From: Tenrec ecaudatus
Taxonomy: Eukaryota > Chordata > Mammalia > Afrosoricida > Tenrecidae
Length of the DNA stretch: 64,000 nucleotides
Assembly (NCBI RefSeq): GCF_050624435.1
Contig: NC_134539.1
Location: 44,796,001-44,860,000 of the forward strand
Direction: 5' to 3'
This document shows positions 48,125-58,261 of the stretch, piece by piece; position 1 is the first letter of the stretch; the number at the start of each line of letters is the position of its first letter. Made by a program: the position numbers and the translations under genes. The notes under the pieces are model-generated. The model was not told the origin of the DNA and did no database searches. It saw only the letters and a list, made by a program, of their open reading frames with translations.

Positions 48125-50103
48125 TTAAGTTAAAATCTAGGGTATATAAAATTAAATGTCACAAGGAGAATGTAATAAGCAGTCATCTCAATTATTAGGT
48201 ACTCTTTATTATACAGTATAAATGGCTTTGTAACTCCATAATGACAGTCCACCAAGGGACTGACAGGTAAGTGGCTTAGCTATGTGCATGTTGAGTAGTG
48301 TTTTGTCCTCTTACAGTTTTGGAAAGCCTTTTACATTTAACATAGATATGGAAGCTTTCTCTTTCCAGGTAGGAAAAGTCAATGCACAGTGACATTTCGG
48401 GAAAAAATAGAGTAAAAAAAATCTCTCAATATTTGGTGAATGTTTTTTTCTATTTGAGATAATATGAAGATGACCACCACTAGTGGATAAACCCATTTTG
48501 TGTCCCTACTGTGTGTCAGAAAACTCTAATGGAGGTAGATTGCCAGAGGAACCAATTACATCGTACTGCAAACAACAAAACAAAAAATTAAAATTTTAAA
48601 TTGCTTTCTTTGCTCTTTAAAAAATAACTCTTAAGTTATTTTTTTACCTATATGCTTAAAAAGGCACAGGAAGGTACTCTTCATTTTCAATAACTATTTT
48701 GTAAGTTGCAAACAATAATGGACATTGAAATCGAGACAACTAGGATTAGTATTTTGGTGCTGCCTTCTAGTCTTCTCTGGGTTTCCTATTGTTCACAGCT
48801 CCCTTCGGCGGACAGACGCACACACTGAAATGTACACAATTGCAGTTGCATTGCTTTTAGTCCTACATCCTGCTTTTTCCACTTAACATACCATGAGCAT
48901 TTTTCCATGCCATTAAATATGCGTTGAATATGTTCTTGGCCACATAAAATTCCATCCCATTGATACACCTGTTTTCTTTTAAGCAAAGACACACCATTTT
49001 TTCCAGTCATGCTGGACTCTTGTAAGCCAAGGAAAATACTTTTGTGTTGATCTACCATGAGCCGCCTGAATTTCTCTATTTTAATTCCATTTATAAAATA
49101 TAGCCAACAGTACAGACCTCTGGACAGTAGTGACAAGACAGTTTACAAGCACTTTGAAGAAAACGCCAGTCAGCTTCTGTCCCCTAGCTGTCAACTATTA
49201 GTCACCCACATCACCGTCACACACAGTACGGGCGGGTGACAAGTGTCGCACATGCCTTTTCCATAATGAACTGCAAACTTTTGGGCACCCACCTGAAAAC
49301 ATTTGAGTCACATACACTGTCCCCAAAAGTCTCCGGGCAAGTTTAAGCTTTAGGAAGTTCAAGAATAGGCTACAACCTTGAAAAAGAAACCCCCCAACGA
49401 GACTTAAATCTACTTCTCACTTAGTTCTGGTAAATACGATTTTTTTTTAATTGCTGTCTTTAACCAGATGGACGGATTAAGTTGGGTTCTGACATCTGTC
49501 GGGGCTGATCAGCAACATGCAAAGCACAATGAGGCCTTCGATCCTCACGAGGGCACTGTGGAACTACGTTCTTAGGGTTGGGCTGCTGCTGTGGGAAGGC
49601 TCTTTACATGTTTGGTGAGCCCCCAAAAAACCAGGCCTCTGCAGGGACAAGATTTTAATTTCATTTTTATAAAGGGCAAGCCATGAAAAGAGATGAGATT
49701 TTAATGTTTTCATTGCACTTTCATGAAGCACAAACTTCAGAACCTTTTAAGAAACGCAAAGCTGAAATACGTGTGATTATGTTATGAGTACATAGATACT
49801 AAACTGGGCAAATGGTGGAGCTGCCTTGACCCAGAAAGTCCGTGTCAGGTAAAGAAACTGTTTTCATGTACTTTAAAAATACCAGCTGACGAGTACATCT
49901 GGGGAACCCGGAACCAGGTAAGTTTTAGGGAACTGCTATTCCCAGTACTCATCTGGGCACTGCTGTAACACTACAAGTTAGAACACACCACCTGTTCTCC
50001 TCCCCCAAGTCTCTCAAGGTGTGCTTCTCCCATCCCTTAATGTTTAAAAGCGAAAACTCTGTTTCGTGCTTTCCCAGGGAAAACAAGCAAAGCAAAATCA
50101 TAG
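48125..50103. other. 3' flank of KLF4, repeat-poor
   Basis: Apart from an old L1-like scrap (48.8-49.0 kb), it is unique AT-rich sequence. It has no AfroSINE over 2 kb, which hints at selective constraint or recent luck. Confidence 0.5.
48810..48990. repeat. possible ancient L1 3' UTR remnant downstream of KLF4
   Basis: CTTTTTCCACTTAACATACC, ATGAGCATTTTTCCATGCC and CCACATAAAATTCCATCCCAT resemble an old mammalian L1 3' UTR. It is strongly diverged. Confidence 0.4.
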
Positions 50104-50123
50104 TTCAGATAAAATATTATAGG

Positions 50124-50129
50124 TTTATT
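50124..50129 (-). terminator. KLF4 main polyadenylation signal AATAAA
   Basis: On the minus strand AATAAA lies 15-20 bp upstream of the inferred cleavage site, preceded by TTAAGTTTTA. It is the distal of two canonical hexamers in the 3' UTR. Confidence 0.85.
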
Positions 50130-50245
50130 TAAAACTTAATTCTCACCTTGAGTATGCAAAATACAAACTCCACAAAATGTTCATTTTTTTACTTTGTAGT
50201 TTACAAATATACAAAATAGAAGTTTGCTTAAATTTATATTACATA

Positions 50246-50251
50246 TTTATT
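50246..50251 (-). terminator. KLF4 alternative proximal polyadenylation signal AATAAA
   Basis: A second minus-strand AATAAA, in the context CTTAATAAATATG, lies 122 bp upstream of the main one. Its use would shorten the 3' UTR by about 120 nt. Usage cannot be judged from sequence. Confidence 0.5.
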
Positions 50252-51022
50252 AAGGCAAGGAGCTATATAGAAAACACATTTGTTCTGCTTAAGGCATACT
50301 TGGGAATAAACCATTGTACAAATTATTGCACATCTGAAACCACAGTGCATACAACAAGACTGTCTGCATAAAAAAAATGTTAAAAGAAGTAAACCAGGTG
50401 TATTTACCTGACTTAGGTCATACATGTAGATCGGAAGACAACAATAGATTTTCCTTGTCGCAGTATGCAGCAGTTTGAGAACTTTGGCTTCCTCATTTGG
50501 TACCTTTAGAACCAAGACTCACTAAGCACCATCATTTAGGCAATTAAAACACATGTTCTGTACCTGAATTTCTTCCTTTTTTCTTCTCATAGAGTAATGG
50601 CTTTTAGAAGGCAAAGAGAATACAAGGTGATCTTTATGCTTATATTCAAGGGGAAGTTTTTCCATTCCCGCTCCCAATTCACGGATCTAATTTATACCCT
50701 GACAGCCACAACTTCCAGTCACCCCCCCCACCCCCTGCTTGGCATTTTTTTGTAAGTCCAGGAATGTTCAAGTTGAATTTAGTTTGGAATGATAGAAGAT
50801 CCAGCCACAGACCCCAGATTTGTTCTTTGATCTTTTTTTGTCTCTCGGTTTTCTTTCCTCCGTGCTTCCTGATTATCCAGTCACAAGCTGGCTCTGCTGG
50901 GAACTTGACCATGATTGTCGTGCTTTCCAGCCGGGTTCCTCTCCCTCACTGGGAAGACAGTGTGACAGGTAAAAATACTGAATTCTCTTCTGGCAGTGTG
51001 GGTCATTGCCACTGCTGGGGAT

Positions 51023-54621
<3,599 letters not shown>

Positions 54622-54626
<5 letters not shown>

Positions 54627-55236
54627 TAATGTGGAGGCCCACAAGGTCCTTGGGAGCCCGAAGTTGGGGAGGGTCCCCCGAGCCCCCAAATCAACGAAGA
54701 GTAAAAACAGGCTTAGAAAGGAAGCCAAAACCCCAAACCGCCTAAGATCCTTCTTCTTTGGATTAAAATAAGCCAGTGATAAAAGTCTTTCAAAAAAAGT
54801 TCCTTTGTATACAAAAGTTCTTAGAAAAGTTGTAAACGCTTATAAAAATAGACAAGGCGAGTAGTAGGTTCGGTAGCCAGGGCTGCGTTCTCCTCGGCTC
54901 AGTGGTGTCCCCCTCCGCGGTCGCGGTCGCCGTGGCTGTCGCCGTGGGCACCGGGGCTGTGGCCGGGGCGGCGTCGGCGGGCGGGTGGCGCCACCAGGTG
55001 AGACTGGCTGCGGCGGCGCGGAGCTGCGGACTGGGCGGCGGCGCAGGGCGAAGAGTCCAGGGGGCTGCGCGGGGCGCGAGCGGCCATGGGCGCGGGCCAC
55101 GGGTGGGTGAAGAGGTGGGTGGGGGGCCGGAGGAGGGGCGGGGAGGGGCACTCGGCGGTTCCCGGTACCGCCGCCCGCCGCCGCCTCTGCTCCCCACGCG
55201 CCCGCAGCCGCGCTCGCTCTCTCGGGCCGGGGAACT
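54622..55236 (-). other. KLF4: KLF4 exon 1: 5' UTR plus first five coding bases
   Basis: This exon is mostly 5' untranslated, strongly GC-rich in its first 350 bases and then AT-richer towards its end. It finishes with the first ATG (54626-54624) plus AG, followed by the donor GTAGGT. The AT-richer part (54760-54850) includes the AAGGAACTTTTTTT and GAAGAAGGATC patches that I recognise from the human KLF4 leader. The first ATG has T at -3 and A at +4, a weak context, so leaky scanning to the second ATG in exon 2 is likely. Confidence 0.85.
54899..55087 (-). CDS. upstream ORF in the KLF4 leader, 62 codons
   Basis: This complete small ORF lies wholly in KLF4 exon 1. It starts about 150 nt after the predicted cap site and stops about 270 nt before the main ATG. 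Its peptide begins MAARAPRSP, contains the block SQSHLVAPPA, and ends in RGGGHH; it is rich in Arg, Pro, Ala and His. The start has G at +4 but C at -3, a moderate context. From memory, the human KLF4 leader has an ORF at the same place that begins MAARAP and contains SQSHLAAPPA, HSP and GDRD, with a length within two residues. Peptide function is unknown. The ORF could act on KLF4 translation, or the likeness could just reflect conserved leader DNA. Confidence 0.5.
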   Translation of the reverse strand: MAARAPRSPLDSSPCAAAQSAAPRRRSQSHLVAPPARRRRPGHSPGAHGDSHGDRDRGGGHH

Positions 55237-55268
55237 GCCGGCGGCCGCCGCGCGCTTCTTACTTATAA
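55236..55268 (-). promoter_or_regulatory. KLF4 core promoter: TATA-like box and start region
   Basis: On the minus strand TTATAAG occupies 55268-55262. It lies about 30 bp upstream of the AGTTCCCCGG sequence (from 55236) that corresponds to the 5' end of the human mRNA as I recall it. The spacing fits a TATA-directed start within a CpG island. Confidence 0.72.
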
Positions 55269-55327
55269 CTTCTCGGCTCCCGCGCCCTCCCCGACTCCTC
55301 CCGGCCGAGCGCCCCGGCCAGCCGCCT

Positions 55328-55337
55328 GGCCCCGCCC
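55328..55337 (-). promoter_or_regulatory. GC box (Sp/KLF site) in the KLF4 promoter
   Basis: GGGCGGGGCC on the minus strand lies about 95 bp upstream of the inferred start. It is the consensus for Sp1/KLF factors, compatible with autoregulation, which is inference. Confidence 0.55.
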
Positions 55338-55390
55338 ATCCCTTTCTTCTCCCCTCCCTCCCTGCCCCCCCTCTTGTTGCCATGGCAGCT

Positions 55391-55402
55391 AAATAAACAA
55401 AC
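55391..55402 (-). promoter_or_regulatory. forkhead-like site in the KLF4 promoter
   Basis: The minus strand reads GTTTGTTTATTT, containing the forkhead core TGTTTAT. It is an AT-rich island inside very GC-rich DNA about 160 bp upstream of the start. FOXO control of KLF4 is known in other mammals; binding here is inferred. Confidence 0.45.
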
Positions 55403-55725
55403 TTCGTGCGCACGTGGGGGCGGGGGGAAGGAGGGGCGCTGGCGGGGCGGGCCGGGCCGTGACGCCAGCCGGGCAGCTGGCGCGCTGGAGCCACGCTGAC
55501 GCCGGTGGCGGCAGCAGTGGCCGACCGGGCTCTGGGCGTGGGCTCTGGGGTGCAGGCCCAATCGTCTCCTCGCCATCGGGGCCATCCAAGCCTCCCCGGC
55601 CGGCTCCCTGGATGCGAGCGCTCAGGCCCAGGGAGAGGGAGGCAGGGGGAGGGTTGGGAGGATCCCAGGCCCAGCTCCCGCACGAGCCGCCCGTGTCTGC
55701 GCCCCGAGAGGCGCGATTGTTGGCG

Positions 55726-55732
55726 TGACTCA
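55726..55732. promoter_or_regulatory. AP-1 consensus TGACTCA upstream of KLF4
   Basis: A perfect palindromic-type AP-1 heptamer sits about 490 bp upstream of the inferred start, at the edge of the CpG island. Isolated heptamers occur by chance, so function is only a suggestion. Confidence 0.35.
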
Positions 55733-55899
55733 TCGGGCCCTCCCGGGCCCTCCCGCCCTCTCACACGCACACACACGGGAGCGGGGCGCCAGCCCAGGAG
55801 CGCTCGGCCCAGCCTGGGCAGGTCGCAGGACCGTCAGCCCGTAGGGACGAGAAGCGGGAGACCCTGGCTGTCACCAGGACTCGGAGGAGGCCAACGGAG

Positions 55900-58261
55900 C
55901 CTTCCGCGCCGTGAAGGGCGAAAAAGAGGCCAGAGTGGGATCAGTCGGTTGGCTGATGGTTGGAAGAGCAAGGAGAGGGGTGGAAAAGCTCTGGATCGTT
56001 ACTTTGGGGGGGGGAGGGGGGAAGAGGCCCGGGAGGCATTTCAACCGAGGATCTCAAAGCACTTTACAAGCCAAGCATTCTCCTCTCCACTTTATGGATG
56101 AAAAAACTGAGTCACAAAGGGGAGAAATGGTGAAGTAAAGGTCAAACGACAACGCGTACCATTCGGCTCAGGCTCCAGGCAGGTCAGTCCCAAGTGGCCG
56201 GGTGCCTGGAGGGTGCTTGGAAGTGAAGTGAGGTTGTGGGCGCCGGATTCCCGAAAAGTGCACCCTGAGCTCCTCCCAGTAGCCAACCTGGATGCAGACG
56301 GCCCGGTGGGGTGGGGAGGAAACGGGAGGTCGTTAATTCAGTGTTACAACGCTGCTGCCCCCCCCCCGCCCCTGTTCTCAGCTTCTGATCGCTAATTTTC
56401 CAAGAGGAAAATGTTTTCGCCCTCTACTCTGCAAATAGTACTTTTGTTTCTCCCTCTTTTTAACGAGAAATGCGGTGTGGGGCATCGCTCGCTGGAAGTA
56501 GGCTTGGGAGATGTGCGTGCACAGGCTCTGGCCTCACCATGGCTGCCCCTTCCCCAATCACTTGCCACCCTCCGCGGGTGTCAGTCTAGGAGACAGACGG
56601 AAGGGACGCTGGGGAAAGGGTCGTAGCTCGAGGTGGAGTGTGGGCTGACCGTCACCGAGGTCTCCTTGCCTCGTACTTTGTTTGGGTCGGTGTCACCTGT
56701 TGAAGTCCTGCGATTCTGGTACCTATTAGGTTTCCTTGTGATATTTATTACCCCCGATGCTCCACGCCTCGCTGACCACAGAAGCATTCTTGGAATGCAT
56801 CGCGCCCCGAATGAATCGACTCAGCTGGCTTTGCCAACGCCAAGAAAGAATCCCTCTAGGTCCAGGGAGTTGGAAGGCTTGAAGGATGGAGCCTGCAGCT
56901 GGGGGGAGGGGTGTGCTCTGGCTGGGAAACCAGGGGCCACCCTCCCACAGCCTCTAGGGGCGCCACCACCCCCCACAGGACTAGGCTAGTAATGTTAACG
57001 CTTTGGAAATGTTGCCCTTTTAAGAGAATCGGAAAGGACTGACACCTGCTCTTCCTCCCACTGAACACCCTCCTTTCGCTGTGATGGAAAAGAAACTTCT
57101 TAGGATGCTAGGACTTGAGGTGTGCATGGACAATTTTTCCACTTCCCTATCAAGGCCAAGATCCCTAAACCCCAATGAACTTGGATGAGCCCTTGATTAG
57201 CAGCTATCCCTCTCCAGATGTAAACATGTAAGTCAAGACTTGAAATTTCCAATCTAGATAGCCAGCACACCAATTTTTTCCTGTTTGCTTTTATTTATTG
57301 AGGCAGTAACCACCGAGCAGGTCCTCCCATCTCCCCCCTGCCCCCTGAAAGGAACAACCATCACAAAGAAGAAAAAAAAATACCAATATTACACAGATGA
57401 GTTGGAAAGCCACAATTATATAATCAAGACAAGATTCTAAAACTCAATTTGAAAAGAGGAACTTGTACTTTCCAAACAGCCAGCCGCCTTCAGGAGAACA
57501 AAAGCCAGTGCCTCTTCATGGCCCCTGCGATCTGGGCCTTGCTCTGTTTGCATCACAAAGGGGCATCTGTGTATTGGAACCACGTTTCTAAAAGGGAAGG
57601 AACTGCAGTTCACAAATCATCTTTCAGGGCAGGTCTCCAGTGTGACAATAGGGTGATGTATGACCCTCCCTTTCTGGGGCCTTCAGAGCAGGTAGGTCCA
57701 GAAGAGTTAAATCCCTGCCCTAGATAATTTATAAACATGAGGCTGAGTAAACCTTTGATGACTAAATTGCACTCTAAAATAATAACAATAGAAGACACCC
57801 TTTAAAGAAGAATTAAATACTTACTGGTGACTTTATTTCAGCAAACTGATATTACAAGTTTTGTGGTAGGAAGTTAATTATTAATGTCCTTGGAGTTATA
57901 AAATAGATTTTTTTTTCAGTGCAAACCATTAGTTGGCAAAAGGTGATGGAAACCATCGTTGCTAAGGAGTTAGAGGGAGCTTCAGAGAGGAGTGAGAGAT
58001 CGAAGAGGCTGCTTGAAAGTTTCAGGTGGAGGGACTCTGCCCCCCGGAAAGATTGGGCTCAGGATCGGGGTGTCCCAGAGGCGTGGGGTATGTGTGTGCA
58101 AAGCTTAGCCAAAGCTGCTTTTGAAGAAGAGGAAAGCGGGGGATGGGTCAGTGGTTCACTAAGTGGCTTCATAATGAATCCCTGTTAATAACTGTGAGAG
58201 ATGGCAAAACCCTCTGCTCTGATTTTGTCAGCTCCCATCTCTTTATGAACCTGTCTTGTGT
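55900..58261. other. upstream flank of KLF4
   Basis: One MIR (56.05 kb) and no AfroSINE, L1 or RTE. There is a G-run near 56007 and a C-run near 56360. It is a candidate proximal regulatory region by position only. Confidence 0.5.
56045..56160 (-). repeat. MIR remnant upstream of KLF4
   Basis: GATCTCAAAGCACTTTACAAG, CCACTTTATGGATGAAAAAAC and TGAGTCACAAAGGGGAG. Confidence 0.68.

What the first reader, a model, noticed from the sequence alone, without database searches (positions are those of the whole stretch)
54899..55087. Possibly conserved 62-codon upstream ORF in the KLF4 5' UTR
The minus-strand leader carries an intact ORF beginning MAARAP and containing SQSHLVAPPA. From memory, the human KLF4 leader has an ORF at the same position with the same start, the block SQSHLAAPPA and almost the same length (60 codons), although surrounding leader bases differ. 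Indels that keep frame across afrotherians and primates would suggest selection on the peptide or on translation through this ORF. It could repress KLF4 synthesis, make a micropeptide, or be a by-product of conserved DNA.
Basis: partly seen in the sequence, partly recalled or inferred. Interest (0 to 1): 0.75.

Follow-up and report, generated by a model that had tools for sequence, protein, structure and literature searches.

The report
KLF4 leader uORF, already described
The short open reading frame upstream of the stem-cell gene KLF4 is really there and has been published in mouse as a mild brake on KLF4 production, but on the few sequences compared the peptide it would encode changes about as freely as unselected DNA, so it looks like an ordinary regulatory upstream frame rather than a conserved micropeptide.

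Summary
The ORF is confirmed: minus strand 55087-54899, 62 codons plus stop, exon 1 of a mammalian KLF4 gene. Its openness is not evidence of coding: in this 80% GC stretch all three forward frames are open, and 1609 of 2000 shuffles of the ORF body stay open.

It is in print: Nishimura 2020 (PMC7043748) reports a 180-nt uORF in mouse Klf4 exon 1. Destroying its ATG doubled a reporter, but the uORF did not carry the polyamine response.

Peptide selection is not supported. Window-mouse dN/dS is 0.98, with differences 10/13/10 over codon positions; a shifted frame scores about the same or lower in each pair, within 0.02. KLF4 exon 3 gives 0.08-0.28. Identity falls after the uORF start.

Best reading: a start codon in conserved leader DNA that diverts some scanning ribosomes and lowers KLF4 output about two-fold whatever peptide is made. 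With three sequences and no ribosome profiling, weak constraint is not excluded.

The parts
54899..55087 (-). KLF4 uORF, 62 codons plus TGA stop
   Evidence: translation; only ATG before the exon-1-end ATG; orthologue of the published mouse 180-nt uORF
55080..55096 (-). uORF start region CCCGCGCCCATGGCCGC, a 17-base run invariant in the three leaders compared; C at -3, G at +4, so a moderate context that would allow leaky scanning
   Evidence: the context judgement is established knowledge applied to the sequence
54622..55236 (-). KLF4 exon 1 (putative TSS about 55236, by match of its first 12 bases to the published mouse 5' primer; TATA-like TATAAG about 30 bases upstream, 55267-55262)
   Evidence: inferred, no transcript data
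54624..54626 (-). first in-frame KLF4 ATG at the end of exon 1 (ACATTAATGAG); dispensable in the mouse reporter
   Evidence: mouse result
54478..54480 (-). second in-frame KLF4 ATG in exon 2 (GACATGG, G at -3 and +4); the start required in the mouse reporter; 299 mRNA bases after the uORF stop
   Evidence: mouse result; distance counted by hand coordinates
54790..54855 (-). AT-rich leader block (TTGTCTATTTTT...TTTTGTATACAAAGGAACTTTTT) with two of the three longest invariant runs of the leader; carries the first stops of the other two frames (ending 54840 and 54790)

Best explanation
It is an ordinary regulatory uORF. A 40S subunit scanning from the KLF4 cap meets one upstream AUG in a moderate context. 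A fraction of ribosomes start there, translate about 60 codons of an Arg/Pro/Ala-rich peptide, stop, and mostly do not restart at the exon-2 KLF4 AUG 299 bases on. The rest leak past and make KLF4, so output falls about two-fold. The act of translation matters, not the peptide. The start codon persists because it lies in a strongly conserved 5' leader, and the frame stays open because the DNA is so GC-rich that stops are rare in every frame. Shown in mouse: start-codon loss doubles the reporter (paper). Shown here, on few sequences: no sign of peptide selection. Inferred: leaky scanning, poor reinitiation, and transfer from mouse to this species.
For: Mouse uORF ATG to GTG gives 2-fold more luciferase with no change in the polyamine response; only the exon-2 ATG is needed. 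The bases around the start (GCGCCC|ATGG) are identical in window, recalled mouse and recalled human, and the published mouse primer shows the same bases apart from its own mutation. Window-mouse dN/dS 0.98, codon-position differences 10/13/10 of 58 each, 21 amino-acid changes against a permutation null of 21.4. KLF4 exon 3 control windows 0.08-0.28. Simulations with omega 0.2 reach the observed changes in 0 of 400 runs for mouse and 0 of 400 for human. One shifted frame scores as low as the uORF frame (within 0.02) or lower in each of the three pairs. Openness is expected from composition. RNA structure is not unusual: z -0.04, 48 of 100 shuffles as stable.
Against: Mouse passes the eight published checks made. 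Human matches 5 of 6 published primers, all outside the uORF; the sixth has 4 mismatches at its expected place downstream of the uORF, so either the printed primer or my recall is off there. The window-human pair (dN/dS 0.59; 19 changes, null 21.4, P 0.20; omega 0.5 simulations reach it in 127 of 400) does not exclude weak constraint, and in two of three pairs the uORF frame has the lowest dN/dS, by 0.02. Both indels in the uORF are multiples of 3. No ribosome footprints were seen here. The reporter effect is one study in one cell line, n = 3.
Confidence: 0.75

Rival explanations
1. By-product of conserved DNA: the leader is a conserved GC-rich promoter flank and the ATG and open frame are incidental, with little effect on KLF4 in the animal.
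For: The 149 bases before the uORF are more conserved than the uORF (0.915 against 0.817 window-mouse, Fisher P 0.015; 0.887 against 0.814 window-human, P 0.088; 0.889 against 0.794 mouse-human, P 0.024). All frames are open.
Against: In mouse the start codon has a measurable 2-fold effect in a reporter. A 17-base invariant run covers the start codon.
Confidence: 0.2
2. The frame encodes a micropeptide, or a nascent peptide acting on the ribosome, kept by selection.
For: Start, stop region and length are kept in three species. Two of two indels inside the uORF are multiples of 3, against 3 of 16 in the flanks (P 0.065). The block SHL-APPA and the GGG near the end are shared. The uORF frame has the lowest dN/dS of three frames in two of three pairs, by 0.02.
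Against: dN/dS 0.59-0.98, matched or undercut by a shifted frame within 0.02. Codon positions evolve alike. Constraint at omega 0.2 or below is essentially excluded by simulation for both pairs tested: at most 1 of 400 runs per setting. The GC-rich 5' leader also has 2 of 5 indels in threes. No Pfam match at E up to 1.
Confidence: 0.07
3. A regulated uORF: bypass under eIF2-alpha phosphorylation or another signal raises KLF4 translation.
For: The anatomy (a single uAUG with moderate context, far from the main AUG) is compatible. A review passage says Klf4 among others escapes mTOR-mediated repression in ES cells, without naming its uORF.
Against: The one signal tested, polyamine depletion, did not act through the uORF. 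No stress data on this uORF turned up in the passages read.
Confidence: 0.12
4. The uORF stop, lying upstream of exon junctions, makes KLF4 mRNA a target of nonsense-mediated decay, so the repression is partly at RNA level.
For: The stop is 277 bases before the exon 1 end (counted), further than the usual 50-55 nt rule (recalled).
Against: Klf4 is down, not up, in Upf2-null mouse blastocysts (passages only), though loss of epiblast cells confounds this.
Confidence: 0.1

Closest known systems
Mouse Klf4 exon-1 uORF (Nishimura et al. 2020, PMC7043748; abstract and the reporter-construction, 5'-UTR results and discussion sections read)
   Same: Same gene, exon, position, start context, near-equal length (180 nt against 189 nt) and both downstream in-frame ATGs; almost certainly orthologous.
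   Different: 9 nt longer here; codon 5 already differs (published mouse start encodes MAART, window MAARA); the 12-base CGG-type repeat noted in mouse is interrupted here.
Conserved-peptide small ORFs, including uORFs (Mackowiak et al. 2015, PMC4568590, authors recalled; passages read)
   Same: A short frame with start and stop kept between species.
   Different: That set is scored by depletion of nonsynonymous changes, frame conservation and conservation steps at start and stop; here nonsynonymous changes are not depleted and conservation steps down after the start. KLF4 is not named in its main text; its tables could not be read.
AMD1 uORF (MAGDIS), as discussed in PMC7043748
   Same: A uORF on a mammalian mRNA, considered for polyamine control.
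   Different: The KLF4 uORF is far longer and did not carry the polyamine response in mouse.

Membership tests
Repressive (non-peptide) uORF | AUG and stop both upstream of the main start, in the same mRNA | tested here: met
   ATG 55087, stop 54899, main ATG 54480; exon structure inferred by comparison with published mouse primers, no transcript data
Repressive (non-peptide) uORF | Loss of the uAUG raises main-frame output | not testable with these tools
   Published for mouse only: 2-fold
Repressive (non-peptide) uORF | Initiating ribosomes at the uAUG | not testable with these tools
   No profiling data held; implied for mouse by the reporter result
Conserved-peptide uORF / micropeptide | Nonsynonymous changes depleted relative to synonymous (dN/dS well under 1, phyloCSF positive) | tested here: not met
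   0.98, 0.59, 0.75 in frame; shifted frames 0.93, 1.65, 1.03 and 0.65, 0.61, 0.77; coding control 0.08-0.28; three sequences, two recalled; phyloCSF not run
Conserved-peptide uORF / micropeptide | Nucleotide conservation steps up at start and down after stop | tested here: not met
   Identity 0.89-0.92 before, 0.79-0.82 inside, 0.82-0.85 after
Conserved-peptide uORF / micropeptide | Frame kept through indels | tested here: inconclusive
   2 of 2 events in threes inside; 3 of 16 in flanks, of which 2 of 5 in the GC-rich 5' part; P 0.065 and 0.29
Polyamine-responsive uORF (AMD1 type) | uORF mediates the response to polyamine depletion | not testable with these tools
   Published as negative for mouse

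The most novel reading that the evidence does not exclude
Under weak constraint that three sequences cannot resolve (omega about 0.5, perhaps limited to the start and the SHL-APPA and GGG segments), the KLF4 uORF could make a short basic peptide, or tune the restart distance, as a placental-wide KLF4 dose control that responds to a signal other than polyamines.
Probability: 0.1. Interest if true: 0.45.

Novelty: already known. Interest (0 to 1): 0.15.

Why it matters
KLF4 dose matters in reprogramming, epithelia and tumours (established knowledge), so a two-fold translational brake in its leader is worth knowing, and the presence of the same frame here and in mouse suggests the brake is old in placental mammals. 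For the scan it is a caution: in very GC-rich leaders every frame can be open, so an intact 60-codon uORF shared by several mammals is not by itself evidence for a peptide.

Tried and rejected
Peptide matched to families: the uORF peptide has no Pfam match at E up to 1. Relatives in public collections: a 29-base leader pattern found 0 stretches in viral contigs and 0 in genome contigs, so no real mammalian leader was available here. RNA families: no match near the gathering score in 50000-57000 (3 weak matches). RNA structure of TSS-to-uORF stop: ordinary for its composition (z -0.04, 48 of 100 shuffles as stable). tRNA genes in the window: none.

Literature: the four peptide strings and two phrases occur in 0 papers. 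KLF4 with uORF: 33 papers, 31 listed, of which I opened seven (PMC7043748, PMC8718978, PMC9687065, PMC5340085, PMC13154585, PMC10902345, PMC11437038); in what I saw of them, only PMC7043748 treats the KLF4 uORF. KLF4 with ribosome profiling and upstream open reading frame: 8 papers, 4 of them opened. KLF4 translation phrases: 11 papers, of which PMC7043748 and PMC6100109 were opened. KLF4 with upstream ORF: 19 papers, 15 listed, 3 of them opened. All but PMC7043748 were seen as passages only.

Search for published strings inside the uORF, to verify my recall: 0 of the three uORF strings tried (two human, one mouse) and 0 of 6. The ChIP and PCR primers in PMC6100109 were read but not tested against the leader. 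A sixth human primer (PMC5522099, KLF4 Endo reverse) does not match my recalled human leader exactly: 4 mismatches at the expected place, downstream of the uORF.

Full report
What is there. The minus strand at 55087-54899 holds ATG, 61 further codons and TGA, as described. It lies in exon 1 of KLF4: the last 58 residues of the zinc fingers match seven distinct solved KLF4 sequences over their whole length at E 2.5e-43 to 2.4e-42, better than KLF5; four multi-finger sequences rank above only by summing several stretches. The leader begins with the first 12 bases of the published 5' primer for mouse Klf4. In the putative 615-base exon 1 there are only two ATGs: the uATG at 55087 and the first in-frame KLF4 ATG at 54626, whose codons run across the exon end. 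The second in-frame ATG is in exon 2 at 54480.

Is it more than chance? Not by length. The uORF is 80% GC and all three forward frames are open across it. In the other two frames, the first stops after the uATG come at 98 and 81 codons. 1609 of 2000 dinucleotide shuffles of the ORF body stay open; 1350 of 2000 draws from the shuffled TSS-to-stop region stay open; 469 of 2000 shuffled exon 1 sequences hold a complete ATG frame of at least 62 codons.

Prior work. Nishimura et al. 2020 (PMC7043748; abstract, and three sections) describe a 180-nt uORF in mouse Klf4 exon 1. Changing its ATG to GTG in a Klf4-luc2 reporter in NIH3T3 cells gave 2-fold more activity, with no difference in the response to polyamine depletion. 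Their first in-frame Klf4 ATG was dispensable and the second was required. The other papers opened do not treat this uORF in the passages I saw.

Getting sequences to compare. The two collections scanned held no match to a conserved leader pattern (0 stretches), and the window's own genome could not be reached. I therefore typed mouse and human exon-1 leaders from memory and checked them. The mouse copy passes the eight published checks made: 604 bases before the first ATG, 114 G+C in the first 140 bases, a 180-nt uORF, a 12-base CGG-type repeat (my pattern accepted any phase), and four primer-derived strings. The human copy matches 5 of 6 primers from three papers, all outside the uORF; the sixth has 4 mismatches at its expected place downstream of the uORF, so the printed primer or my recall is off there. 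Nothing published that I found checks the human copy inside the uORF. All comparative numbers below rest on these copies; the window-mouse pair is the most reliable.

Conservation pattern. Identity before, inside and after the uORF is 0.915, 0.817 and 0.823 for window-mouse; 0.887, 0.814 and 0.816 for window-human; and 0.889, 0.794 and 0.852 for mouse-human. Before against inside gives Fisher P of 0.015, 0.088 and 0.024. The start codon sits at the end of a conserved stretch (17 invariant bases, 55096-55080), the fourth longest run; the three longest (23, 20, 20) are downstream of the uORF. Conserved small coding frames are recognised by steps in conservation at start and stop, and by depletion of nonsynonymous change (PMC4568590, passages).

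Peptide selection. Of 189 uORF columns, the 9 with a gap in any sequence were dropped, and start and stop codons were removed, leaving 58 codons. NG86 dN/dS is 0.98 (window-mouse), 0.59 (window-human) and 0.75 (mouse-human). The same columns in frame +1 give 0.93, 1.65 and 1.03, and in frame +2 give 0.65, 0.61 and 0.77. So the uORF frame is the highest of the three in the best pair and the lowest, by 0.02, in the other two. Differences by codon position are 10/13/10, 7/13/14 and 10/13/14. Codons with an amino-acid change are 21, 19 and 24, against permutation means of 21.4, 21.4 and 23.6 (P 0.52, 0.20, 0.66). 16-25% of permuted copies would carry an in-frame stop, so intact frames are not surprising. 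As a positive control, six overlapping 58-codon windows of KLF4 exon 3 (window against a recalled human piece, 207 codons) give 0.08-0.28, with changes mostly at third positions. In simulations, omega 0.1 reaches the observed changes in 0 (mouse) and 1 (human) of 400 runs; omega 0.2 in 0 and 0; omega 0.3 in 1 and 16; omega 0.5 in 19 and 127; and omega 1.0 in 200 and 354. Strong constraint is excluded on these data; weak constraint is not.

Indels. In the three-way alignment both events inside the uORF (6 and 3 bases) are multiples of 3, against 3 of 16 outside: 2 of 5 in the GC-rich 5' part and 1 of 11 in the 3' part. The chance of both falling among the multiples of 3 is 0.065 over the whole leader and 0.29 within the GC-rich part. 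Two events cannot carry the argument, and GC-rich triplet repeats change length in threes without coding (inference). A frameshift would also do little harm to termination, because the AT-rich block stops the other two frames before the KLF4 start.

Mechanism. The uATG context is C at -3 and G at +4; the exon-2 KLF4 start has G at both positions. The uORF stop is 299 mRNA bases before that start (counted coordinates). This suits partial initiation at the uATG, leaky scanning past it, and little restart, giving a modest constitutive brake, as measured in mouse. Leaky scanning and poor restart are inferred; the two-fold effect is published for mouse; its presence in this species is inferred from the identical bases around the start. 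The leader's RNA fold is not more stable than shuffles.

Verdict. A real uORF, already described in mouse, best explained as a peptide-independent brake inside a conserved leader. The hope of a conserved micropeptide is not borne out on the sequences available, with the limits stated.

Noticed in passing
window 54855-54794, minus strand (also 54764-54745): An AT-rich block in the otherwise GC-rich KLF4 leader, with a neighbouring stretch, holds the three longest invariant runs among the leaders compared (23, 20 and 20 bases), one including GTATACAAAGGAAC; it may be the more interesting element, as DNA or RNA (two of the three leaders recalled).
   Followed up: partly
window 55383-54790, minus strand: A 197-codon ATG frame overlaps the whole uORF in another frame, but its ATG lies upstream of the putative transcription start, so it is probably a product of composition.
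   Followed up: partly
window about 55185-55165, minus strand: The 12-base CGG-type repeat that the mouse paper proposes as a polyamine-sensitive structure is interrupted here; my any-phase pattern finds none in the window leader and one each in the recalled mouse and human leaders.
   Followed up: no
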